DNA of 64,000 bases from a virus. Numbering within the stretch: position 1 is the first letter of the stretch; each line of letters opens with the position of its first letter. The position numbers were made by a program, and so were the translations under genes. The notes beneath the pieces are model-generated. The model was not told the DNA's origin and searched no databases. It saw only the letters and a program-made list of their open reading frames with translations. The stretch spans positions 1 through 64,000 of IMG/VR virus record IMGVR_UViG_3300036820_000018. One strand, written 5' to 3'. This document shows, piece by piece, positions 11,344 through 61,014 of this stretch.

Positions 11344-11379
11344 AGAAGCCCTCCTCCCCGCAGGGAAGAGGGCTTCTTT
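11344..11379. terminator. bidirectional intrinsic terminator
   Basis: GAAGCCCTC ... GAGGGCTTC stem with a loop of about 11-12 bases, preceded by AAAA and followed by TTTA. Separates the rightward lysogeny operon from the leftward late operon ending at 11426. Confidence 0.8.
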
Positions 11380-11423
11380 AGTTCAGCGGATAGAGCACCG
11401 GTTTCGCACCGGGCCGAAGGTTA
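11379..11423 (+). other. tRNA-derived sequence, possible attP core
   Basis: Reads like a tRNA from position 8 through the start of the T arm: TAGTTCAGCGGATAGAGCA is a standard D arm with GTTC/GAGC pairing, followed by a CCGG...CCGG anticodon stem and GCCGAAGGTT. The acceptor and T arms are missing and the anticodon loop is the wrong size for a working tRNA. Its place after the integrase operon suggests an attachment site copied from a host tRNA gene. Inference. Confidence 0.4.
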
Positions 11424-11425
11424 TG

Positions 11426-12130
11426 TCAGAACGGAACCGGAGTCACGGTAAAGCCAGCGACACCGACTGAGGCTGCAGGGTCCCCACCTTCCCACCCGAT
11501 GAACCAGTTCCCTGGTAGCCCATCTGTTGTGAGAAGCGCCTGATAGGCACCGACGTCATTGCGGATGATGGCCCCGACCCCGCCGTAGGTCCAAGTCTCT
11601 GAAGGTGCCCCTTCCCCTGCGACAAAGGTCAGAGAAACGACCCCGGGATCGGTGGGCATTCCTTCGGACTGCGGGGGGAACTGCGTGAAGGTTGCCTGGG
11701 TCATCACCGCGTTGCCCTCGTAGAGAGGGTTCGTGCAGGGGAAGCAGATGACCTGACAAGTAGCGGGGCCTATGGCTATAACCGCGGAAGTGACGACCGA
11801 GTCAGAGACGCTGACGACGTCAGAGACACCGACGGAGGGCAGCCTCTCTTGGACCAACACGGTGTCATAGAGAAAGACCAGGACCGCCGAAGGACCCGCT
11901 GCGTCTGTGACAAGAACGATGTCGACGACACCGGTCGCCTGTACTGGGATCCCGACTCTGTCGGTCACATGAACCGTGTCGGAGACAACCGCCCCTTCTC
12001 CAGCACTGGCATCGTGGACGAGCACGATGTCTGTGATCATCGTCGGAGCAGCCCCACCGAGATAGCCCGGTGCGGCTAGCCCCGGTGCGGCTAGCCCTGG
12101 AGCGGCAGAGAAGGCAGGGATGGCAGGCAT
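11426..12130 (-). CDS. tail-tip repeat protein with DxVxVxDS repeats
   Basis: 234 residues. A collagen-like N-terminus (APGLAAPGLAAPG, from a 15-base tandem DNA repeat near 12072), then about five repeats of the type DIVLVHDAS, DTVHVTDRVG, DIVLVTDAAG, DTVLVQERL, DVVSVSDSV. A C-terminal domain (VSLTF...TTDGLPGNWFIGW...VGVAGFTV) is shared with the 13771-14679 product. Probably a virion decoration or receptor-binding protein; last gene of the late operon. Confidence 0.65.
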   Translation of the reverse strand: MPAIPAFSAAPGLAAPGLAAPGYLGGAAPTMITDIVLVHDASAGEGAVVSDTVHVTDRVGIPVQATGVVDIVLVTDAAGPSAVLVFLYDTVLVQERLPSVGVSDVVSVSDSVVTSAVIAIGPATCQVICFPCTNPLYEGNAVMTQATFTQFPPQSEGMPTDPGVVSLTFVAGEGAPSETWTYGGVGAIIRNDVGAYQALLTTDGLPGNWFIGWEGGDPAASVGVAGFTVTPVPF

Positions 12131-13770
12131 TACTTCGGCGGGTAGTAGCTCGTCGTTGTGATGGTCGGGGTCCCGTTAGTCCAGCTCGGAGTAAAGCCTC
12201 CTCGAGCAGCGAGAGCGAAGTGAATCGAATTGCCAGCTTGGGCTGTCCCGCAACTGATTTGGTTCGCTGGAGCTCCGACCGTCGCGGTACATGTCGCTCC
12301 GGTCGCTGAGTTCGCCGTCATATGCACGAAGACTGGCATGGGATTCGGGTTGTAGATCAGAGTCCCGCTCCCAGACAGCGTGCACTGAGTGATATTGCTC
12401 GAGTTGTCGATCCACGGGGCGATCACGTTCGGCGGCCCGGTGATCCCCTTTAGGAGGGCATTGTTCTCTGTCGACAGATCAGCAAAGAAGTTCGGGTAGG
12501 CATTGGTGGCGCTTGGGGTGCCCTTGTTGACCACTGGGTTGGTGATGGTCACGTTCTGGACGTTGACGAGGTCAGGGTTGAAGTGCCTGATGCTGATGTC
12601 CGAAGGGAACTGGCTGGTAGACGACTGGGTGTAGTCGAAGAACATCAGAGGCATCTGAGCCTGGGTGCCCCACGGGCGGATGATGTCGATGAACTCGATC
12701 GTTATGTCGTCACACCGTCCGAACCAAATCGCCACACACGCATACTGGCTGGCTGCCGAAGAAACGTTGGAATGATTGACGTAGAGGAGCCCGATCCGCA
12801 TCGAGTGAGTGTCGCCACCAGGGGAAGACCAGTAGGTGCCGAGGTTGAGGGCTGCAGCAGCTTGGCCGCTACCAATGATGAGGGCGGCGTTCGCGTTGAA
12901 GGCGTAGTGATCCAGAGTGTTCTGAGAGGAGTTTCCACCGCTTGCGGACTGGTCGTAGTTCAGGCCCTGGACAAACCCCGCGACAGTGAGGAAATCAGTG
13001 TGGACGAAGCTCGTGGACTCAAAGAGGATCGGGGTCTGGCCGTACTGGACCGGGGAAAGGCTCGACCCACCGTGCGCTGTCGGACCGTTGAAGCAGAGGT
13101 TCTGAACCATCCCGCCTTGGAGAAAGGACCCTGACCCCGAGGTACTGCCACCCCAGATAATGCCGGGGTACCCCTGGAGGTTCGGGAAATTCAAGACACA
13201 TGAGGACTTCCCGAGAGTCAACCCGGGCGGGGTGTCAGAAGCGAAGATCACACCGTCTGACCCCTGGGTGATGCTCCCCGCTGTGCCCGTCTCAGAGAAC
13301 ATGAAGTTCCCGTCGGGGATCCAGACCTTGGTCGGCTTCCCTGTCGCCGCAGCGTTGGCTGCAGCCTGTGTGAAGGCATTCTGCAGCTGAGTGTCGGAGA
13401 AGGTCGAGCCTGACGGGTCCATCCCGAACTCCACAACCCCGTTGAGGGTGTTGTAAGGCGAGATGTTGTTGACGAACTGCGACAAGATCACGATCAAAAG
13501 AGGAGCGCCGGGGCTGTGGGTGAAAGAGAACCCAGGGCTCGCCAAGGTAAGAGACGTCTGAGTTGCAGTCGCTATGACGACAACGTTCTCAGGGTTGGAA
13601 CTCCCATAGTCGACAAGCAGCCCGTAGATCTCATTGTCTGCGAGGACTGGCCAATCACCGTTAGTGATCGTGATATTTGCCGCGACCCCGCCTGGGTTCA
13701 CGGTGCCCTGGAGAGTGGCCGTGCAGTAGTCCGAGAACACGAACTGGCCCGGGACAATCGGAGCACCCAC
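12130..13770 (-). CDS. tail spike, parallel beta-helix (pectate-lyase-like)
   Basis: 546 residues. N-terminal beta-domain for attachment; FTQAAANAAATGKPTKVWIP is the entry helix and first strand typical of phage spike beta-helices, followed by many short strands with Asn/Gly turns. C-terminal small beta domain with Cys pairs. Such proteins bind or cut host surface polysaccharide. No catalytic triad could be assigned by eye. Starts in a TAATG overlap region with its neighbours. Confidence 0.7.
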   Translation of the reverse strand: MGAPIVPGQFVFSDYCTATLQGTVNPGGVAANITITNGDWPVLADNEIYGLLVDYGSSNPENVVVIATATQTSLTLASPGFSFTHSPGAPLLIVILSQFVNNISPYNTLNGVVEFGMDPSGSTFSDTQLQNAFTQAAANAAATGKPTKVWIPDGNFMFSETGTAGSITQGSDGVIFASDTPPGLTLGKSSCVLNFPNLQGYPGIIWGGSTSGSGSFLQGGMVQNLCFNGPTAHGGSSLSPVQYGQTPILFESTSFVHTDFLTVAGFVQGLNYDQSASGGNSSQNTLDHYAFNANAALIIGSGQAAAALNLGTYWSSPGGDTHSMRIGLLYVNHSNVSSAASQYACVAIWFGRCDDITIEFIDIIRPWGTQAQMPLMFFDYTQSSTSQFPSDISIRHFNPDLVNVQNVTITNPVVNKGTPSATNAYPNFFADLSTENNALLKGITGPPNVIAPWIDNSSNITQCTLSGSGTLIYNPNPMPVFVHMTANSATGATCTATVGAPANQISCGTAQAGNSIHFALAARGGFTPSWTNGTPTITTTSYYPPK

Positions 13771-16975: not shown

Positions 16976-17248
16976 TTAGACGTGAGGAATCGGGGCAGGG
17001 ACAAGCGCGACGCCCACAGGAGGAGCGGGGGCAGCCGCTGCAACGGCTTTGGCCTTGGCAGAAGTGGCCGCTACCGAGGCGACGTGATAGCCCGGGATGG
17101 CGATGAGAGCCGCTGAGATGGCCAGGAGCACCCCTTGAGCAGCAGTCGAGAGGTGCGACCCGTAGATCGGGGTGAGGACCGCTCCTGCGACCCCTGCGAG
17201 GGAGTGCAGGACAGAAACGATTAGCGGGAGGTTGACGTTGACCTTCAT
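16976..17248 (-). CDS. holin candidate, two membrane segments
   Basis: 90 residues. ATG at 17248 follows GAAAGGGAACCAAA. Two predicted membrane helices (LPLIVSVLHSLAGVAGAVL and GVLLAISAALIAIPGYHVA) and an Ala/Lys then Pro-rich tail. This is the usual look of a class II holin or a related actinophage membrane protein. The endolysin is far away at 60157-61014, so the assignment rests on topology alone. Confidence 0.5.
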   Translation of the reverse strand: MKVNVNLPLIVSVLHSLAGVAGAVLTPIYGSHLSTAAQGVLLAISAALIAIPGYHVASVAATSAKAKAVAAAAPAPPVGVALVPAPIPHV

Positions 17249-17262
17249 TTTGGTTCCCTTTC

Positions 17263-17340
17263 TCACGGTGATTTGCTATCGAGACGAAGGCTGAATGCCG
17301 TCTTGAATGCTTGAGCGGCTGGCGATTGGCCAGAAGTCGC
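17263..17340 (-). pseudogene. detached C-terminal tag of the lipoprotein gene
   Basis: In the same reading frame as the 17365-18612 gene, after two in-frame TGA codons, 25 codons read SPAAQAFKTAFSLRL near their middle. The GH12-like product ends in PAAARSFKAAFDARL. The match suggests a shared C-terminal tag that was lost from the lipoprotein by stop mutations. No start codon of its own. Confidence 0.4.
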
Positions 17341-17364: not shown

Positions 17365-18612
17365 TCACGGCAGTGCAGCAACCGCCGGCCCCTGCACCGG
17401 ACTGACCGGGCAGTACACGTACCGCAGTCCCTTCGCCACGTTCTGACAGACGGTCACTCCTCGAGGCGACCAGTCCACGCCCTGGCGGTTGAGCGGGAAG
17501 GCGTTGTCGTCGATCTCGGTCGTCTTGGCATCGACAGGTCCCCAGATCCACACGCCAGGCCGACTGAAGTTGGCCGACGATGACTCCTCGGTTGCCGTGT
17601 TCGAGTCGATGCGGATGTTCTCCGACGCAAGCGCGGGGTGAATCAGGACGGTCATCTCGCCTGTGATCGTGTTGTTCGAGAACTGCAGACGGTCGATCGC
17701 GCTCCCCGTCTGGGCCGACAGGACCGCGGCCGAATGGGTGTCGTTGATCGTGTTGTGCAGGATGTCGAGATCGTCCTGGTAACCACCGACGGCATCGACC
17801 TCTACGTCGAAGACTGCGTCGGGGACGCCCGAGAGGGTGTCATCGGAGAACGTCACGTGATTGGCGAGGATGATCGACAGCCCCTGACGGCCGGTACCCG
17901 AGCAGGTCGAGTCAGTGACCGTGACGTTGGTGGCGGGGTACTCGTAGCCGACGCCGCCGGATGCCTCATGGAGAGACTGAGCATCGACGCAGTCGCCGTA
18001 TGGGTCGGACATCTTGGTGTCGGTGACCTCTGCGTACTGGGTGCCGTCGAAGCTGATGAAGGTGTCCTGCTCAGTCGGACCGCCCGCCGTCCCTTTATTC
18101 GGCCCACGGAAGGTCATGTCCTTCACGGTGATGTGACAGCCCCCCTCGAAGACGACGGGCTCGACGATCGGCTCAGTGCCGGGATCAGCGAGGAAATCTG
18201 TGTCGCTGGCCTTTGTGAACCCGCGGTTGCCGCAGTACGCCGCACCGTTGGGGAGGGTGTCGAAGGTGTCACCGACAAGGGCCGCTGTCTCCTTGATGGT
18301 CCCGTTCTCCAGGGTGAAGTTCCGGAAGTCGCGCAGGAACATCGACCCGTTGACGAGGAAGCAGCCGCCGGAAAGGTCTACGACTTCACCTGTTCGTGGC
18401 AGTGAGTAGAGCCATTTCGCCAGCGCCTTGGTGTCATCAGACGCGCAGGTCTGATTGATCGACGCAGGCGGGCTCACCACGTTGGTCGCCACGGCTGGTT
18501 TCTGAGCCGCAGGAGCCTTCGTCGTGGTCGTGGCGGCGTGCGTCTGAGAGCAGGCGGCGAGGGCCACAGCGGCGAACAGAGCCACCAATAACGGGAGAAT
18601 GCGGCGCCTCAT
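17365..18612 (-). CDS. beta-helix lipoprotein
   Basis: 415 residues. Start at ATG 18612, inside the stop of the 22-residue leader ORF; the longer reading upstream is a shadow. MRRRILPLLVALFAAVALAAC is a lipoprotein signal with lipobox LAAC and Cys21. A Thr/Ala/Pro linker follows, then a right-handed beta-helix (ENGTIKETAAL, ITVKDMTFRGPN, NVTVTDSTCSG, LDILHNTINDT). Family members bind or cleave polysaccharides. Export and anchoring in the host envelope is unusual for a tail protein and suggests lysogenic conversion, receptor masking or surface polysaccharide editing. Inference. Confidence 0.72.
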   Translation of the reverse strand: MRRRILPLLVALFAAVALAACSQTHAATTTTKAPAAQKPAVATNVVSPPASINQTCASDDTKALAKWLYSLPRTGEVVDLSGGCFLVNGSMFLRDFRNFTLENGTIKETAALVGDTFDTLPNGAAYCGNRGFTKASDTDFLADPGTEPIVEPVVFEGGCHITVKDMTFRGPNKGTAGGPTEQDTFISFDGTQYAEVTDTKMSDPYGDCVDAQSLHEASGGVGYEYPATNVTVTDSTCSGTGRQGLSIILANHVTFSDDTLSGVPDAVFDVEVDAVGGYQDDLDILHNTINDTHSAAVLSAQTGSAIDRLQFSNNTITGEMTVLIHPALASENIRIDSNTATEESSSANFSRPGVWIWGPVDAKTTEIDDNAFPLNRQGVDWSPRGVTVCQNVAKGLRYVYCPVSPVQGPAVAALP

Positions 18613-18677
18613 GCTGGCGGGGCTGGCGCATCGAGCTGGCGCAGTAGGGATGCGAGGCGTTGGGTGTCGAGTGTCAT
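18609..18677 (-). CDS. 22-residue coupling peptide ORF
   Basis: ATG at 18677 overlaps the TGA of the GH12-like gene; AAAGGAG lies six bases upstream. It reads MTLDTQRLASLLRQLDAPAP plus two residues and stops in a TGA overlapping the ATG of the lipoprotein gene. The lipoprotein itself has no clear ribosome site, so this short ORF probably delivers ribosomes to it by coupling. Confidence 0.6.
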   Translation of the reverse strand: MTLDTQRLASLLRQLDAPAPPA

Positions 18678-19549
18678 GCTGCGCTCCTTTGCAGTCGAGC
18701 GTCGAACGCCGCTTTGAACGACCTCGCTGCAGCCGGTTCGACTGGTGCAGTGACCGCTGGTGCGCCGTTGATCCGGAGGCTAAAGGCCTGTAGCCCGAGG
18801 GTGATTTGACCGTTCGTGTAACAGATCTCCGCACCATCGCTCATCTGCCAGAGGTAGGCGTTGGGCAGGTAACCGTTGCTCTGGGCCCACTTGGCAAAAG
18901 CCAGAAGGTCGGTGTGGTCCGAGGTGTAGTTCTTGGTCGCCTCGAAGGTGATGATGTTCCCCGCCGAATCGTTCCCGACCCAGACCGTGTAACTCTCGCC
19001 AGAGAGGGTGATCGTGCCGGGGAGTTCGGTGCCAGCGGGGACCTGGTTGCAGGTATAGGCCCAGATCATCATCTCGGTGGACTTGCCCGACCATTCCGTC
19101 GAGCCGCCCCACCAAGGATCGTTCGCGTATTCGTAGTCATTGCCAGTGCAAGAGGGGGTCGCGTAAGCGCGGTAGTTGGAGTACATCGAGGTAAGCGAGG
19201 AGAGCGGCGTCGCTGCGGCGAGGGTCTCATTGGCGTCGGGGAAGGACTGGACGCGCCCACCTTCGCCCCCACCTGAGGATGCCGAGGCAGTGACGTAGAA
19301 GGAGTTCTCAGCGCAGGCATAGAGGGTTTGGGAGATGTTGTAGTTGTCCCAGACGTCGTTCGAGACATCGTTCGCCCCGCCGTATCCGACCACACCCGAC
19401 GGGGACGAAGAGGTGTAGTTCGGGTCCGTGCAGAGGTGGAAGCCGGGCCCTGCACCAGTCGCATCGAGCGAATAGTTCTGGCTCGACGGCACCATCACCG
19501 CAGCGGTTGCGAGTCCGAGAGCGACGATCAGAGCGAGGAAGATCTTCAC
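18674..19549 (-). CDS. exported GH12-like glycoside hydrolase
   Basis: 291 residues from a GTG six bases after AGGAGG. VKIFLALIVALGLATAAVMV is a signal peptide or anchor. The rest resembles GH12 beta-glucanases: SMYSNYRAYATPSC, STEMMIWAYT (candidate nucleophile Glu159), ITLSGESYTVWVG, LLAFAKWAQSNGYL, and DGAEICYTNGQITL (candidate acid/base Glu241) before a final strand FSLRI. The tail carries the PAAARSFKAAFDARL motif. It would cut beta-1,4-glucan-like polymers outside the cell. Virion location is possible but the signal peptide argues for secretion from the host. Confidence 0.68.
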   Translation of the reverse strand: MKIFLALIVALGLATAAVMVPSSQNYSLDATGAGPGFHLCTDPNYTSSSPSGVVGYGGANDVSNDVWDNYNISQTLYACAENSFYVTASASSGGGEGGRVQSFPDANETLAAATPLSSLTSMYSNYRAYATPSCTGNDYEYANDPWWGGSTEWSGKSTEMMIWAYTCNQVPAGTELPGTITLSGESYTVWVGNDSAGNIITFEATKNYTSDHTDLLAFAKWAQSNGYLPNAYLWQMSDGAEICYTNGQITLGLQAFSLRINGAPAVTAPVEPAAARSFKAAFDARLQRSAA

Positions 19550-19585
19550 TGCGTACCTCCTGTGTGAAACGCTTAAGGGGTGAAA

Positions 19586-19831
19586 GTGACGCGCATCCAG
19601 CGGCTCATCTGTGCAGAATGCGGCCAGATGCAGAGGGTCAAGAACCAAGCGGGTTGGTCCTCACCGTGCTTCGACTGCGGGCCGACTACGTGGTTTACTC
19701 TTTCGACGAGGGCGCCCGAGAGAACCCTTACGGTCGATCCGATCTGGGACGCTTCTACGGGGACGTGGCCCTCATGGGAGGTCGAGATGGATGCCTTCGA
19801 GGCCTACCTAGAAGCGTTATGGCAGGACTAG
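19586..19831 (+). CDS. small zinc-ribbon protein on the opposite strand
   Basis: 81 residues from GTG 19586, five bases after AAGGGG (GTG 19580 is the alternative). LICAECGQMQRV and SPCFDCGPTTW form a CxxC...CxxC zinc ribbon; the C-terminus is acidic. It is the only confident plus-strand gene within the leftward late operon; its stop overlaps the stop of the facing gene in a CTAG. Looks like an independent regulatory insert. Function unknown. Confidence 0.65.
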   Translation: MTRIQRLICAECGQMQRVKNQAGWSSPCFDCGPTTWFTLSTRAPERTLTVDPIWDASTGTWPSWEVEMDAFEAYLEALWQD

Positions 19832-42820: not shown

Positions 42821-45800
42821 TCAGGACACTTTTGGGCGGTTCACCTCGGCTTTGACGATCATCACCGTGTCGCCGGGTTCTAGGGGCTCAGGGAGGATCA
42901 GACGGCCTGAGTAGTCGATCGTGGCCTTCTGAGCTTGCTCCAGGATTGGCTCTAGGACCTCGAGGCCTTCACGGACCTTGTCGCGGATGACCTTGTCGTC
43001 GAGATCGTCGGTGTCCCACCAAGAGACTGCCGCGATCTCGTCTCCGTCAGGCTCCCCGAGGGAGACATCGTCCTCAGAGTCCGTCGAGTAGACGAAACCC
43101 TGGAAGATCCCGTCGTCTGAGCGCCAGGTGCCAACCATCTTCGCGTCGGTGGGCATCTTGCAGCCCGTCTCTTCGGACCATTCACGCACAGCTGCGTCGT
43201 GAGCCGACTCGCCATCGTCTAAGTGGCCAGCTGGTGTCTCCCAAGAGGCTCCATTACCGTCATCGTCTTTGTTGCCGCGACGGACGAGCAGAACCTTGCC
43301 TGAGTCTCGAGCGACGAGAGCAACTCCAGCGACTTCGGGACCCTTGGAGTCGTGAGCCTTAGCGGCCCCGCCGAAGGCGAAGACCCGGCACTCGTCTCCG
43401 CGGTGGACCGAGAGATGGGTGAAGGTGACAGGCGTGGGCGGGATCGGAGCCGGGAGATCTTCGTTGGAGTCCATGTACGCGAGCGTCATATGCGGATGAA
43501 AGTCGCTGTGCTGGCTCCCGTTGAACTGCTCGAGAGGTCCGCGAAGGGCTTCGATGCCCGGGATCTCGGGCTTAGCCCAAACCGGAATTAGCCAGTCACT
43601 CGACTCAGAAGCAGGGAAGGTACCCCGGCCACCGATAGTGCCTGACATTGGTCCACGCTGGGCGCTCGCGACTCTGGCAGCTACCGCACAGATCTTCTCG
43701 AAGGTGGCGTCATCAGCGATCTTGCCGCAGTAGACGATCGTGATGTGCTGGTCGGGGACCCCATTCTCCATCACCGGGATCAAGCCAGGGGGAACGTCGA
43801 GGGAGACCATCGTTGAGACCGGAGAATGCACCCCAGCCGTTGCCTTAGCGAAGGCCGCGTCAACCTCTTCGCGGGTTGTGGCCTTAGACAGCTCTGTCCA
43901 GACCGCGTCATAGACCCGTGTGGAAATCGCTGAGTTGTCGAAGTGACGCGGGAGGTCGTTCTTGGCGACGCGCTTTTGTGAGGCACGCTTCCAGCGCTTT
44001 AGGTCGAGCTTCTCTTCGATCTCGTCTTCAGGATCGTCGGGGTCCTCTGCGTAGTGAGCGCCCGCGATACCTGTCGCGATCCCGATCCCAGCGGTTGCCT
44101 CTTTAAGAGTCCTTCTCGACGCCGTTCCCTGATCTACGCGTCCGGGGGCTGCGGACCCGCGCGGTCTGGCGGGATTGGACCCGTTGGACGCGGCGGGCTT
44201 CTTTGCGCCCACTAGCGGTGCGGTCGGTGCTGGAGTTAGTGGGCCGGGGCCGAGTGGCCCCCCCACTTTTGGGCGTGCCGGGACCTTTCGCCCAGCGGCC
44301 GTGTCGTGCTGCCTCGCCTGGCTGTAGGCAGGAGGACCTGGAGCATCGGGATCTGGGCCCGGGGTGCCGGGAAGGACGAGCTCGATCGGCCGAACGGTCC
44401 CTGGACGTGGGGCTCCGGTCAAGGGGTCCACGTCTCCCGCGACACCGAGCAGGTAAGAGATCGGGATCGGGCCGAGGCGGTTCGAGTCGAAGAACCTCGG
44501 CACCTTCTCCTCGGGATTGATCGGGTAACCCAGGACCTTGTCTCTGACTTCGTCAGGAGACTCTGCGCCGATCGAGACGTAGATCTGGTGAGACTGCGCC
44601 TCCATGAGGCGGTCTTCCTTCTCGCGACCGGTGTCGAAGCGGAGCTGCACCGGGAGACCGAGGTCCTCCTGGGTGATCGCGTCCATGATGTCTTCGTAGT
44701 AGCCGACGTGGGGAAGTGAGTTGATCCTGAACTGCGTGTCCATCTGGGTGTCAGAGGTGCTGCGGTTCACGTCGTCGGTGAAGCCGAGGTCCTGGGGCAT
44801 CATCATGAATGCACCTGTAGTCCGGCGCATCACGTACTCAGCGATGTCAGGGTCGAACTGCTGCGGCTTGTAAAACTCGATCTCGGTGCCGTGAGGCAGC
44901 CATCTGAGCCCCCAGCGCTCTGACTGGTCCCCGTAGGTCCAGTCGTTGTAGTCCTCTTGCCATTCAGCAAGAGAGTCAGGGTCTGACTGGTCCTCGGGAG
45001 CCATCGCGAAGGCCTCAGGGACGTTGCCCGTGGTGAAGAACTGCAAGAAGTAGGTCTGGAGGCGCAGGTCGGTGTTCGCGTTGACCAGGACCGTCTCGAT
45101 CGGTGCGATGCCATAGGGGTCCTCTGTATGAGGCCACATGGGCTCGTAGATCAGGTCCTCAGATCTCAGCCAGTCCCAGGGGATTCCTTGGATGAACTGC
45201 TGGAAGGCCGGAGCCTCGCCGATCGGCTCTGCACCGAAGTAGTCAAGCATCGGGGCGAAGAGCGTCCCGTCGGCTACAGGCAGGCTGATCAGGCGACCTG
45301 CGCGATCACGCTGACGGTAAAGGGTCCCGCAATCGAAGCGCCAGACGTCGGTCGCGTGCTTGCAGAGCCAGTTACGAAGCGTGTTGCCCGAGCCCGCGAT
45401 CACCTTGCCCGACTCAGGGTCGAGCCTCTTGTCGGGGCGACGCCAGAACTCTTTAGCGGCCGCGATCTCTTTGACGCAGTTCTCCTCGTACCCGTCCATG
45501 ACCTCGAAGCGCACTCGCATCGAGCGGAGGTCTTGGATCGCGTGGCGGTAGCAGATGGTCGCCACGTCGTAGGAGGTGATCAGGTGCCGGATCGTCTCGA
45601 AAGGCATCCGGCCAGGGCGCGTCTGGGTCGAGATGTTGCGCCCGGTGTCGTAGTCGCGCTCTCTCGGCCTGCGATTGTAACCGAAGTACGGGGTCAGTGG
45701 CCTGCCTGGGGCAAATGGCGAGACCCAGTCAATGCCCTGCTCGTGCAGAGCGTTTTCGATCTCGATCGGGGTGATCGTGGACCCCGAGGGATTGATCGAG

Positions 45801-46057
45801 TTAGCTGTCTGGCGAGCGAGCACCTGGGCAGAGACGGGCTTTGAGCGAGCAAGGTGAGCCGTGGTTCCTGACTGTGCGCCCTGGACGTTCCAGACCGAGT
45901 TGTTGCGCAGGGCCTTCGCGACGAGATCGACCTCGCGACGTTCTCTCGGACGCAGGTCCATAAGGGCCAGGTCGTTTTTCGCGACCTTGATGGCCTTGGC
46001 CACGGTCTCAGAGTTGTCCCGTGGGGCGCGCAGACGCTCAGTCAACCTCAGAGCCAT
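42821..46057 (-). CDS. portal protein fused to 2H phosphoesterase and Nudix hydrolase
   Basis: 1078 residues from ATG 46057, which overlaps the terminase TAA. Residues about 1-560 are a portal (WVSPFAPGRPLTPYFGYN, IIRH-like TIRHLITSYDVATICYRH, WLRSEDLIYEPMWPHTEDPY, ALMMPQDLG-type GAFMMMPQDLGFTDDVNRS). A Pro/Gly-rich linker (560-650) and a helical segment follow. Then a 2H domain with QHITIVYCG (His771, Thr773) and HPHMTLAYM (His856, Thr858), and a Nudix box GHLDDGE...REWSEETG at 944-965, fully matching GX5EX7REUXEEXGU. Catalytic residues of both enzymes are intact. Ends at a frameshift site. Confidence 0.88.
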   Translation of the reverse strand: MALRLTERLRAPRDNSETVAKAIKVAKNDLALMDLRPRERREVDLVAKALRNNSVWNVQGAQSGTTAHLARSKPVSAQVLARQTANSINPSGSTITPIEIENALHEQGIDWVSPFAPGRPLTPYFGYNRRPRERDYDTGRNISTQTRPGRMPFETIRHLITSYDVATICYRHAIQDLRSMRVRFEVMDGYEENCVKEIAAAKEFWRRPDKRLDPESGKVIAGSGNTLRNWLCKHATDVWRFDCGTLYRQRDRAGRLISLPVADGTLFAPMLDYFGAEPIGEAPAFQQFIQGIPWDWLRSEDLIYEPMWPHTEDPYGIAPIETVLVNANTDLRLQTYFLQFFTTGNVPEAFAMAPEDQSDPDSLAEWQEDYNDWTYGDQSERWGLRWLPHGTEIEFYKPQQFDPDIAEYVMRRTTGAFMMMPQDLGFTDDVNRSTSDTQMDTQFRINSLPHVGYYEDIMDAITQEDLGLPVQLRFDTGREKEDRLMEAQSHQIYVSIGAESPDEVRDKVLGYPINPEEKVPRFFDSNRLGPIPISYLLGVAGDVDPLTGAPRPGTVRPIELVLPGTPGPDPDAPGPPAYSQARQHDTAAGRKVPARPKVGGPLGPGPLTPAPTAPLVGAKKPAASNGSNPARPRGSAAPGRVDQGTASRRTLKEATAGIGIATGIAGAHYAEDPDDPEDEIEEKLDLKRWKRASQKRVAKNDLPRHFDNSAISTRVYDAVWTELSKATTREEVDAAFAKATAGVHSPVSTMVSLDVPPGLIPVMENGVPDQHITIVYCGKIADDATFEKICAVAARVASAQRGPMSGTIGGRGTFPASESSDWLIPVWAKPEIPGIEALRGPLEQFNGSQHSDFHPHMTLAYMDSNEDLPAPIPPTPVTFTHLSVHRGDECRVFAFGGAAKAHDSKGPEVAGVALVARDSGKVLLVRRGNKDDDGNGASWETPAGHLDDGESAHDAAVREWSEETGCKMPTDAKMVGTWRSDDGIFQGFVYSTDSEDDVSLGEPDGDEIAAVSWWDTDDLDDKVIRDKVREGLEVLEPILEQAQKATIDYSGRLILPEPLEPGDTVMIVKAEVNRPKVS
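42830..42836 (-). promoter_or_regulatory. -1 ribosomal frameshift site CCCAAAA
   Basis: In the portal frame the codons are CGC CCA AAA GTG TCC TGA, giving a canonical C_CCA_AAA heptamer six bases before the stop. After a -1 slip the frame reads CCC AAA AGT GTC and runs without stop into the MuF ORF, adding SFHTPKIAKGIRRLVRP. A GCCCG/CGGGC hairpin lies about 9-10 bases downstream of the heptamer. Frameshift not proven. Confidence 0.7.
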
Positions 46058-47631
46058 TAGCCCACCTTTACGGGAGGTGCGACCTCCTCGGGACTTGCTT
46101 GACACCACACGCAGTAGGTGCGATCGGGATTCCAGCGGTGGTCACAGATCATCCGAGCACGCTTGCGCTCTGAACGAACGCCTTGGCGACGACGGGCCAT
46201 CCGGCGCTCCATGCGAGCCTTGTCATCGAGGATCGCCTCCTCACCTCGATGCTCTAAGCGCTGGGCTGCGTCACGTTCCATGAACTCTCTGAAGTTCGCC
46301 CCGACTCCACCTTCGGAGGTGATGAGGAGGTAGCATCCCATCCCGATGGTGACCGCTTGGTCGTCGTGACCACCTCTTGTGTGATCGAGGCGTGTGACAC
46401 CTGGGGAGGACTCTTTGAGCTTTAGGGCGAGAAGCTCTTCTTTCAACTCTCGAGTGTTCGGGATGAAGATTTGGCGGTTCCTGAAGGTGCTCGTGAGAGC
46501 GCTCGCGACCTCACCGACTGAGGAGGCCGTGAACTTGAACTCTTTGGCCCGCACGCCTCTGCGGTTGAGACGCTGCACCCCGTCAACGAACTGCTGAGGG
46601 TCGGCGTGAGCGTGTGCCCGGTTGTACCGAAAGGATGCCTCGACGATCCAGTCAACCACCCTGTCGATCTGAACGGGCTTCTTCTTCGATCCCCTCCAGC
46701 GCTCGACGTGGTCGACGACGACGCGCTTGGGACCTCTCGGGGCCTTGGGGTCGTAGGGCTCCTTGTGCATGATCGTCATGACCGTGGCGTCGTTCACCAC
46801 ACCGATGTCAACGAGGATTATGTACTTAACGCCCTTTTGCGGATCGAGGGTCGTATACGGCTGAGCGGCTGCTTCCCAGTCCTCTTCGCGGATAGCTGCG
46901 TCTTCGTCCTCTGACCAGAGGTTGAGGACCAGGCGGTCGTATTCAGAGGGACGAAGCTGGAAGCGCAATGAAGCGAGCTCGTCGGGACTCAGCCAAGGGA
47001 CCGGGCCGGGGACTTCGTGGACTCGCCACATCTTGTCCACCGAGCACTTGTCGATGACCTCTTTGGACCAGTGAGAAGGCTCGCCGGCCGAGCTCATCAC
47101 CACGAGCTTGCAGTTAGGGACCTTCGGAGCAGCTGATTGGAGGGCCGACCATACGCGTCGCGCTCCACGAGTGTCTGGCCACTGACAGAACTCGTCAGCT
47201 ACTAAGAAGTGAGCGTCGCGCAGGCCCCAGGACCCTGAGTCTGACTGGGCCAGGACGCGGATCCATGCGCCGTTCGGAGCAACGATGCGCTGGCTCTCGA
47301 CGATGATCGCACCTTCGAGCTCTTCGGTACGGGCTACAAAGCCCGCTGCGGCGTCGATGATGATCGCGGCCTGATTAGTCGAGGCAGCGACGATGTGACC
47401 GTTAGCGAGGGGCCTGGCGTCTGTCATGAGCCAGGAGAGGCCGAGACCAGCGATGTCCGTCGATTTTGAGGCACCTCTTGCTCGGGTGAGGAAGTGCCAC
47501 GTCGCTGCGGGGCGCTCGTTTAAGAGGATGGCTTCGGCGTCGGTCTTCTGGAAGGACCTCGCTACCTCACCCCAGCGGTCTCCGGTTTCGACCCGGAGCC
47601 CATACATGAGGTCTAGGGCGCCCTCACTCAC
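46057..47631 (-). CDS. terL: terminase large subunit
   Basis: 524 residues. ATPase: LTRARGASKSTD (Walker A variant), HFLVADEFCQW (Walker B with Asp-Glu) and a VVMSSAGE coupling motif. Nuclease: ILVDIGVVNDAT (first Asp), AHADPQQFVDG and THTR-like DHTRGGHDDQAV (last Asp pair). The C-terminus adds CDHRWNPDRTYCVWCQ, a likely zinc knuckle. Pumps DNA into the prohead and cuts it. GTGA-type overlap with the small subunit gene. Confidence 0.92.
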   Translation of the reverse strand: MSEGALDLMYGLRVETGDRWGEVARSFQKTDAEAILLNERPAATWHFLTRARGASKSTDIAGLGLSWLMTDARPLANGHIVAASTNQAAIIIDAAAGFVARTEELEGAIIVESQRIVAPNGAWIRVLAQSDSGSWGLRDAHFLVADEFCQWPDTRGARRVWSALQSAAPKVPNCKLVVMSSAGEPSHWSKEVIDKCSVDKMWRVHEVPGPVPWLSPDELASLRFQLRPSEYDRLVLNLWSEDEDAAIREEDWEAAAQPYTTLDPQKGVKYIILVDIGVVNDATVMTIMHKEPYDPKAPRGPKRVVVDHVERWRGSKKKPVQIDRVVDWIVEASFRYNRAHAHADPQQFVDGVQRLNRRGVRAKEFKFTASSVGEVASALTSTFRNRQIFIPNTRELKEELLALKLKESSPGVTRLDHTRGGHDDQAVTIGMGCYLLITSEGGVGANFREFMERDAAQRLEHRGEEAILDDKARMERRMARRRQGVRSERKRARMICDHRWNPDRTYCVWCQASPEEVAPPVKVG

Positions 47632-55092: not shown

Positions 55093-55274
55093 CCCTCTGC
55101 GAGGCTTGCAGGAACTACGAACACGCTGAGTGTCTCGAACCTGTCGCGACGCGCATGGAGCACGACACGGGCTATCACATCGTCCTCGTGTGCTGCTGTG
55201 GAATGCACGACATCTTCGCTGCTCAGTCTGAGGCAGCCATAGAACGAGCAGAGGTGGCACGAGATGGCTACTAG
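55089..55274 (+). CDS. small Cys-rich protein, 61 residues
   Basis: GTGA overlap. LCEACRNYEHAECL and VCCCGMHDIF form a probable zinc site; His/Glu-rich. Overlaps the RuvB-like gene by 11 bases. Confidence 0.6.
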   Translation: MTLCEACRNYEHAECLEPVATRMEHDTGYHIVLVCCCGMHDIFAAQSEAAIERAEVARDGY

Positions 55275-56385
55275 AGGCCTCATCCGATCAATCAAGGGCC
55301 GAAGCCCTACTCAACCGAAACCCAGACCTCAGGTGCAGAACCTCGAGGACTTACGAGCCTGGGCGAGGGAGCAGGCTGCGGCTAGACCAGCGGAACCCGC
55401 CCCCTCGTCAGACCGGGCCGTCTCCGTCCAGGAACCTACCCCAAGCGTCAGAGATCGACCCACCGCTATCTCAGACATGGTCGGACAGAAGGCGCTTGTG
55501 GGGCAACTCAGGCTTATCTGTGCCGGTTCGATCTTGCGAGGGACCCCTATGCCGCACTGCCTGATAACGGGCCCTAGCGGGCATGGGAAAACGACCTTGG
55601 CTTCGATCATTGCGAATGAGATCGGAGCCCACCTGGTCTGTACGAATGGGATGCTGTTGCGCCGGCCTGGGGACCTCGTCGGGCTTCTCGTGAAGATGCG
55701 CCCTAACTCAGCCTTACTGGTGGACGAGATCCATAGCCTGCCTAAGCCCGTCGCTGAGGTGCTTTACGAGGTGCTCGAGGACGGGAAGCTCTCGACGCTT
55801 GTCGGTAGTGGTGCTGAGACTGTGGCCGTCACACATCAGATGGAAGGGTTCGTCTGCATAGGAGCGACGACGAGGCCCGGACTCTTGAGCGCCCCCTTTC
55901 GTGGTCGCTTCGGGTTCGTGGGTCAGGTCGACCCGTACTCAGCTGACGAGTTGGCCGAGATCGTCACTAAGGCTTGGCAACGCGCTGGGGTCGAGGCATC
56001 TGAAGGTGAGGCTCTCGCGGTAGCTACTAGATGTCGCTACGTGCCACGCAGAGCCCTTCATTTGGCCGAGAGAGTCTTGGACTGGACATCGGTCGCCGGG
56101 ATAGACGGCGTGCCCTCTGGGACCGTCTCAGCGGCTCTGGCAGCCTTTGGGATTGACGAGCTCGGACTAGACGGCAACGACTGGCGAGTGCTCGCGGCAC
56201 TGACCCAAACCTTTTCAGGGCGCACCGTCGGACTCGACGCTCTAGGTTCTGCGCTCGACATGGACGCGGCCAGCATCGAGAACGAGATAGAGCCCTACCT
56301 GATTCAGAGCGGGTACATCTCGCGAACCAAGTCGGGTCGGATGGGTCTACCCCTCGCGTATGAACTATTCAGGGAGACAGCATGA
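55264..56385 (+). CDS. ruvB: RuvB-like Holliday junction ATPase
   Basis: 373 residues. After an 60-residue polar N-terminus: TAISDMVGQKALVGQLRLIC, Walker A GPSGHGKTT (103-111), Walker B LLVDEIHSLP (151-160), sensor 1 IGATTRPGLLSAPFRGRFG (199-217, with the Arg finger region), lid helices (YVPRRALHLAERVL) and a winged helix with EIEPYLIQSGYISRTKSGRM. All match bacterial RuvB. No RuvA, RuvC or other resolvase is seen, so it must use host RuvA or act alone, perhaps in replication or recombination restart. Confidence 0.85.
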   Translation: MATRGLIRSIKGRSPTQPKPRPQVQNLEDLRAWAREQAAARPAEPAPSSDRAVSVQEPTPSVRDRPTAISDMVGQKALVGQLRLICAGSILRGTPMPHCLITGPSGHGKTTLASIIANEIGAHLVCTNGMLLRRPGDLVGLLVKMRPNSALLVDEIHSLPKPVAEVLYEVLEDGKLSTLVGSGAETVAVTHQMEGFVCIGATTRPGLLSAPFRGRFGFVGQVDPYSADELAEIVTKAWQRAGVEASEGEALAVATRCRYVPRRALHLAERVLDWTSVAGIDGVPSGTVSAALAAFGIDELGLDGNDWRVLAALTQTFSGRTVGLDALGSALDMDAASIENEIEPYLIQSGYISRTKSGRMGLPLAYELFRETA

Positions 56386-60156: not shown

Positions 60157-61014
60157 TCACGACTCGATTGTGTAGAGAGCCGCGTTAGGAGCCTCGTGGT
60201 GGATCTGGTCAGTCACGTCAGTCGCGAGCCAGCTCCCGGTCCCCTTGGGGTTCTTGAACACAAGCAGGTGTCCCTCGTTGTTGGGGACAGTGCTCACGCC
60301 GGCGACGTACGCATTTCCCTCTGAGTCAAATGTGACTGTCGGTGCCATGTCCTTGATCTCCTCTGGTATCGGGGGAAAGGGTGGTTTGGGCGTCGGGGGC
60401 TTAGGGACGATCTTGGGCCATAGCCCGTCGTAGTTCCAGGCCCCGAAGCGAGTGACGTTGTTAACGACCTCGTCGATGTCTACCTGCTTGCCCGCGATGT
60501 AAGTCGGGTTGGCGAGCTGTAGGAGGTCCGCGAAGCGAGAGACCTGACCGTTAGACCAGGCTTCTGTCTGCCAGTAGTAGCACTGAACGAGGTCTTCATC
60601 CGCAGCTTCGTTGACGATCAGGATTCCCCCATAGGGACCTCCGACGTAACCCGACTCCGCGACGACAGACCTGAAAGCTCGTAGGTAGTCCAGACAGACG
60701 CTTATTTGGGCCTGTGAGACGTCAAAGTCAAAGGCGACGTAGATAGCTGAACCAGGGGGTTGGCCGAGCGCACGAGCGAAGGCAGCGGCCCCCACACCGT
60801 CTGCCATGCCCTGAGCAGCGCCACCTAAGGCAGCTTGAGCTTGATCCTCCCAGACCGTGACGATGCCCATGCCTGCTTCGGTGTAGCCGTTGGCCTCTGC
60901 TCGAGTCAGAGCCTTCCCGTTAGGCAGTGAACAGGCGTAGCGGCAAACGAAGAAGATCCCCGCCTCTAGGAGCTCGGCGGGGGTAGGACCGCTTTCAAAG
61001 TCGCAGCCCTTCAT
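60157..61014 (-). CDS. endolysin, DUF1906 glycoside-hydrolase-like
   Basis: 285 residues. Residues 1-200: KGCDFESG at the start (active-site Asp), FFVCRYACSL, VTVWEDQAQAAL (Glu), AIYVAFDFDVSQ and GGPYGGILIVN, then YYWQTEAWSNG and QVDIDEVV. This is the DUF1906/Rv2525c-like TIM barrel found in actinophage lysins. A Pro-rich linker (KPPTPKPPFPPIPEEI) leads to a small C-terminal beta domain for wall binding. Degrades peptidoglycan for release. Confidence 0.82.
   Translation of the reverse strand: MKGCDFESGPTPAELLEAGIFFVCRYACSLPNGKALTRAEANGYTEAGMGIVTVWEDQAQAALGGAAQGMADGVGAAAFARALGQPPGSAIYVAFDFDVSQAQISVCLDYLRAFRSVVAESGYVGGPYGGILIVNEAADEDLVQCYYWQTEAWSNGQVSRFADLLQLANPTYIAGKQVDIDEVVNNVTRFGAWNYDGLWPKIVPKPPTPKPPFPPIPEEIKDMAPTVTFDSEGNAYVAGVSTVPNNEGHLLVFKNPKGTGSWLATDVTDQIHHEAPNAALYTIES

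What the first reader, a model, noticed from the sequence alone, without database searches (positions are those of the whole stretch)
17365..19549. Exported GH12-like hydrolase and beta-helix lipoprotein inside the late operon
Both proteins have export signals: a signal peptide and a LAAC lipobox. That fits action from the infected or lysogenic host surface, not the virion. A GH12-like beta-glucanase in a phage is rare. The pair could strip host polysaccharide to help release, block superinfection, or give a lysogen a new polymer-degrading ability.
Basis: partly seen in the sequence, partly recalled or inferred. Interest (0 to 1): 0.7.

Follow-up and report, generated by a model that had tools for sequence, protein, structure and literature searches.

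The report
Exported GH12 glucanase in a phage
A temperate phage of an actinobacterium-like host carries, among its late genes, a secreted enzyme of the cellulase-type family GH12 and a partner lipoprotein, probably to cut the host's own outer beta-glucan during release; GH12 has hardly been seen in phages, and the two other phage copies found also sit beside cell-wall-lysis genes.

Summary
Window 18674-19549(-) encodes a 291-residue protein with a signal-peptide-like start and a real GH12 domain: Pfam 39.4 bits against a cut-off of 27, both catalytic glutamates (E159, E241) and the GH12 fold (AlphaFold domain mostly pLDDT >90; VIA-align Z 28.6 to Trichoderma Cel12A). The next gene, 17365-18612(-), encodes a lipobox protein (LAAC) with a Pfam beta-helix hit; its model failed. 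A 22-codon frame with ATGA overlaps at both ends links the two, so they are probably co-translated. The phage is temperate (integrase) and collinear from portal to tape measure with Arthrobacter phage Sonali; the pair lies between tail genes and integrase, where Sonali has lysin A and a membrane protein. A separate endolysin lies at 60157-61014. No other GH12 appeared in 50,697 phage records or in the viral structure library; one motif scan of 2.9 million viral contigs found two, each next to an exported peptidoglycan-hydrolase gene. I favour a late, exported accessory-lysis/release enzyme acting on the host's own beta-glucan over a plant-polymer metabolic gene or superinfection block. Substrate and role are inferred. 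New variant of a known kind (phage-borne glycoside hydrolase).

The parts
18674..19549 (-). Exported GH12 beta-glucanase, 291 aa; signal-peptide-like residues 1-20; GH12 domain about 43-263; catalytic Glu159 (EMMIW) and Glu241 (GAEI)
   Evidence: Pfam 39.4 bits > 27; catalytic residues conserved; model and fold search
19555..19561 (-). Shine-Dalgarno AGGAGG(T), 6 nt before the GTG start of GH12
   Evidence: read from sequence
18609..18677 (-). 22-codon frame MTLDTQRLASLLRQLDAPAPPA; its ATG overlaps the GH12 stop (ATGA), its stop overlaps the ATG of the lipoprotein gene (ATGA); AAGGAG upstream inside the GH12 3' end: likely translational coupling
17365..18612 (-). Putative lipoprotein, 415 aa, lipobox LAAC with Cys21, right-handed beta-helix domain
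   Evidence: Pfam Beta_helix 34.6 bits; AlphaFold inconclusive
16976..17266 (-). 96-aa protein with two predicted transmembrane segments, holin-like by layout only
   Evidence: hydropathy; no family or phage match
19828..20472 (-). 214-aa protein with one predicted transmembrane segment
   Evidence: no phage match
20333..20629 (-). 98-aa protein with an N-terminal hydrophobic segment
   Evidence: no Pfam match
60157..61014 (-). Separate candidate endolysin: Rv2525c/DUF1906 glycoside-hydrolase-like domain, no signal peptide
   Evidence: Pfam 82.1 bits; PHROG endolysin family E 9.3e-32; 38% to lysin A of Mycobacterium phage prophi91-3
10002..10838 (+). Tyrosine integrase: temperate lifestyle
   Evidence: Pfam Phage_integrase E 3.5e-25

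Best explanation
The two genes are a co-translated late module for release. Late in infection (or after induction) the GH12 protein is exported by the Sec route and cuts beta-1,4-linked (or mixed-linkage) glucan on or around the host; the beta-helix lipoprotein, held on the outer face of the membrane, binds or cuts a polysaccharide beside it. Together they open the outer glucan layer or matrix of an actinobacterial host so that cytoplasmic endolysin (60157-61014) action gives full release and spread. Shown: GH12 family, catalytic residues, fold, gene layout, overlapping frames, separate endolysin-family gene. Inferred: export, late expression, substrate, lysis role, cooperation of the two proteins.
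For: GH12 profile, catalytic residues and fold. Export-type N termini. ATGA-linked frames. Portal, capsid, adaptor and tail genes run collinear with Arthrobacter phage Sonali, where lysin A and a membrane protein occupy the stretch between tail genes and integrase; here that stretch holds small transmembrane proteins and this pair. In two unrelated viral contigs a GH12 gene follows an exported peptidoglycan-hydrolase gene directly: L004 (2 nt after an SLT lysozyme-like gene; endolysin-family amidase about 1.1 kb away) and L005/L167, a terminase-bearing 237-kb contig (GH12 lipoprotein right after an endolysin-family Hydrolase_2 gene). Streptomyces makes a cellulose-like glucan exposed on its cell wall (PMC11022532), so a host target exists in this phylum.
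Against: No expression, localisation or enzyme data. The endolysin candidate is 41 kb away, and the transmembrane neighbours match no holin family. In Sonali the genes in that slot are not homologous to these. Only two other viral GH12s were found, so the lysis association rests on three cases, and a secreted enzyme could serve as well outside the lysed cell. The host is known only by phage kinship (Actinomycetota), and whether it makes a beta-glucan is unknown.
Confidence: 0.45

Rival explanations
1. Auxiliary metabolic or lysogenic-conversion gene: the exported GH12 lets a lysogen or infected cell degrade environmental (plant or microbial) beta-glucan as food.
For: Integrase present. Nearest bacterial GH12s are ordinary secreted actinobacterial enzymes. 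Soil viruses are known to carry glycoside hydrolases, one an active GH5 endomannanase (PMC6786970) and one an active chitosanase (PMC9485262).
Against: Sits inside the minus-strand late run, with no sigma-70-type promoter match nearby (weak test in high-GC DNA); no carbohydrate-binding domain, transporter or sugar-metabolism gene seen beside it; a late gene gives little time for feeding.
Confidence: 0.27
2. Surface modification against superinfection or for spread: the pair trims a glucan receptor or matrix so that released virions are not trapped and competing phages cannot bind.
For: Exported lipoproteins serve superinfection exclusion in some phages (own knowledge: T5 Llp, TP-J34 Ltp). Phage S6 of Erwinia uses host cellulose as receptor and carries cellulases (PMC9544554).
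Against: No receptor known for this phage. Llp and Ltp are small non-enzymatic lipoproteins (own knowledge), unlike this pair.
Confidence: 0.15
3. Virion-associated depolymerases whose apparent signal peptides are only hydrophobic N termini; they act at entry.
For: Other genes downstream look like fibres or spikes, for example 12130-13770 with a weak pectate-lyase-like match. Many phage depolymerases are tail parts.
Against: Charged start, hydrophobic core and lipobox in the second protein; L004 GH12 also starts with a signal-like stretch and L005 GH12 has its own lipobox; no tail-attachment domain found.
Confidence: 0.08

Closest known systems
GH12 endoglucanases of secreted bacterial and fungal type (Cel12A of Trichoderma reesei 1h8v; CelB2 1nlr; actinobacterial relatives L127-L130)
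   Same: Profile, fold, both catalytic Glu, conserved Asp144, Met161, Trp163, secretion signal
   Different: Only about 22-30% identity; encoded in a phage late region; paired with a lipoprotein; no carbohydrate-binding module
Erwinia phage S6 cellulases gp094/gp095 (GH48, GH5) (PMC9544554)
   Same: Phage-encoded cellulase aimed at bacterial cellulose
   Different: Other GH families; large proteins tied to receptor use in a podovirus, not described there as signal-peptide proteins
Soil viral glycoside hydrolase auxiliary genes: GH5 endomannanase (PMC6786970), GH75 chitosanase (PMC9485262)
   Same: Polysaccharide hydrolase carried by an uncultivated soil virus
   Different: Different families; no lysis-gene neighbourhood argued for them in the passages read; GH12 not named in the main text of PMC6786970
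Arthrobacter phages Sonali and Mufasa8
   Same: Portal-MuF 39%, capsid 41%; Sonali has the same gene order from portal to tape measure
   Different: Sonali carries an annotated lysin A plus membrane protein in the slot where this phage has the GH12 pair

Membership tests
GH12 (Pfam PF01670) | Profile score over curated cut-off | tested here: met
   39.4 bits against 27, E 9.4e-10;
GH12 (Pfam PF01670) | Two catalytic glutamates, nucleophile in E-x-M-I-W and acid/base in G-x-E | tested here: met
   E159 invariant and E241 at least 90% conserved in a 44-row alignment
GH12 (Pfam PF01670) | Beta-jelly-roll fold of clan GH-C | tested here: met
   AlphaFold model, domain mostly pLDDT >90; Z 28.6, rmsd 1.6 over 208 residues to 1olq, above GH11 rows at Z about 22-23. 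Alignment was built from GH12 rows; no templates.
GH12 (Pfam PF01670) | Endo-beta-1,4-glucanase, xyloglucanase or mixed-linkage glucanase activity | not testable with these tools
   needs assay
Sec-exported protein (GH12 gene) | Positive start, hydrophobic core, cleavage site | tested here: inconclusive
   MKIFLALIVALGLATAAVMV, hydropathy peak; no SignalP, cleavage not shown
Bacterial lipoprotein (17365-18612) | Lipobox L-A-A-C after a charged, hydrophobic signal | tested here: met
   MRRRILPLLVALFAAVALAAC, by inspection; lipidation itself untested
Right-handed beta-helix | Profile over cut-off | tested here: met
   PF13229 34.6 bits against 25.9
Right-handed beta-helix | Parallel beta-helix in a structure model | tested here: inconclusive
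   single-sequence model mean pLDDT 37
Phage endolysin | Peptidoglycan-hydrolase domain in the GH12 or lipoprotein gene | tested here: not met
   only GH12 and beta-helix/NosD hits; the endolysin-family gene is elsewhere, 60157-61014
Phage lysis cassette | Holin or endolysin genes next to GH12 | tested here: inconclusive
   transmembrane neighbours without family match here; clear peptidoglycan-hydrolase neighbours in L004 and L005
Auxiliary metabolic gene | Supports host metabolism during infection or lysogeny | not testable with these tools
   needs expression and growth tests

The most novel reading that the evidence does not exclude
Exported GH12 glucanases are a recurring extra member of phage lysis gene clusters: a further class of lysis enzyme, beside endolysins and LysB/spanins, that removes a cellulose-like outer glucan of the host so that progeny can leave.
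Probability: 0.25. Interest if true: 0.75.

Novelty: new variant of a known kind. Interest (0 to 1): 0.5.

Why it matters
Phage-borne glycoside hydrolases in soil are usually read as carbon-cycling genes. If this class sits with lysis genes and cuts the host's own glucan, some of those genes are release tools instead. It would also make testable whether the cellulose-like surface glucan of actinobacteria is a barrier to phage release.

Tried and rejected
Phage records (tblastn) for GH12 and the lipoprotein: no match. Peptide-pattern scans of viral contigs with GH12, lipoprotein, terminase and portal found no relatives. Alignment A2 was too diverse to scan with. The MLW variant of the GH12 motif hit mostly glycosyltransferases, none GH12. 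L006 and L007 matched the motif by chance. The motif scan finds only 6 of 15 independently found GH12 loci, so more viral GH12s may exist. The viral structure library gave no match at E <= 0.001; absence there proves little. Lipoprotein relatives in 396 genomes: two weak matches only. Host by the tRNA-like stretch at 11376-11425: matches only a short, common tRNA part, not informative. Capsid in the same 396 genomes: none, no positive control; the same search with the portal failed on the machine.

Full report
What is there. The window is part of a 64.7-kb viral record. On the minus strand, 18674-19549 encodes a 291-residue protein, start GTG with AGGAGG six bases upstream. It scores 39.4 bits against Pfam Glyco_hydro_12, cut-off 27, and matches solved GH12 cellulases at E down to 1.1e-8. 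The GH12 nucleophile motif E-x-M-I-W (E159), the acid/base (E241) and Asp144 line up with known enzymes. An AlphaFold model with a 44-row alignment is confident over the domain, and its best solved matches are GH12 enzymes (Z 28.6, rmsd 1.6 over 208 residues), ahead of GH11 xylanases at Z about 22-23.

The partner. 17365-18612 encodes a 415-residue protein with a clear lipobox (VALAAC) and a Pfam Beta_helix hit above cut-off. A single-sequence model failed, so its fold rests on the profile. Between the two genes a 22-codon frame overlaps the GH12 stop and the lipoprotein start by ATGA on both sides, with AAGGAG ahead of it. This points to translational coupling. Codon use of both genes follows the late genes (correlation 0.87 and 0.90), so they are probably long resident.

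The phage. Portal and capsid are 39% and 41% identical to those of Arthrobacter phage Sonali, and the order from portal to tape measure is the same. The host is thus most likely an actinobacterium. An integrase marks it as temperate. In Sonali, lysin A and a membrane protein lie between tail genes and integrase. Here that stretch begins with small transmembrane proteins and the GH12 pair. The cassette genes themselves are not homologous to Sonali's, so this is a positional argument. A candidate endolysin, Rv2525c-like, lies at 60157-61014.

Relatives. No phage record matches GH12 or the lipoprotein. A motif scan of the viral contigs gave two true GH12 genes. L004 carries phage DNA polymerase, tail and endolysin-family genes; its GH12 begins two bases after an exported SLT lysozyme-like gene. 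It is also the best match to the window's GH12 (29.6%, 66 bits). L005/L167 is a 237-kb contig with a terminase; its GH12 carries a lipobox and follows an endolysin-family Hydrolase_2 gene. L005 has no Pfam GH12 hit and is assigned by BLAST to bacterial GH12s (78 bits). In a tree the window's GH12 and L004 fall with a group of actinobacterial secreted GH12s (support 96/89), but on long branches, so the exact place is unsure. Two of those bacterial relatives sit in ordinary chromosomal surroundings. A source in actinobacterial secreted GH12 is likely.

How it works. I commit to a late release module: exported glucanase plus surface lipoprotein that open the host's own outer glucan or matrix. Support comes from export signals, gene order, the overlapping frames and the lysis neighbours in all three viral cases, the window being the weakest of the three. 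Streptomyces has a surface-exposed cellulose-like glucan made by CslA-GlxA (PMC11022532), so a target is known in the phylum. The host here is not known to make it. The main rival is a metabolic or lysogenic-conversion gene, in line with active soil viral hydrolases (PMC6786970, PMC9485262). Superinfection effects and virion parts are less likely.

Novelty. Phage cellulases and soil viral hydrolases are known (PMC9544554, PMC6786970, PMC9485262). My literature searches in the open-access library found no phage GH12; the library is incomplete. This is a new variant of a known kind.

Noticed in passing
window 42821-46108 (-): Portal protein fused to a MuF-like, RNA-ligase-like (783-912) and NUDIX (920-1040) stretch; Sonali has a portal-MuF fusion, but the ligase-like part matched a separate gene in Arthrobacter phage Salgado.
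   Followed up: partly
window 55264-56385 (+): Phage-encoded RuvB with complete N, lid and C domains and a roughly 60-residue N-terminal extension.
   Followed up: no
window 11376-11425: Half-tRNA-like stretch (TAGTTCAGCGGATAGAGCACCGG...) beside a terminator between integrase and late-operon end: possible attP core.
   Followed up: partly
window 19580-19831 (+): 83-codon frame with CxxC...CxxC on the opposite strand in the 279-bp gap upstream of GH12; might be a real small zinc-ribbon gene or chance.
   Followed up: no
L002 2575-4052 (Curtobacterium flaccumfaciens plasmid): GH12-like gene annotated hypothetical, directly followed by an expansin EXLX1 gene.
   Followed up: no
L143-L149, L151-L159: A widespread phage protein family that looks like a glycosyltransferase (MITAILNGYKRPQFLKEQ...), picked up by the motif scan; identified by eye only.
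   Followed up: no
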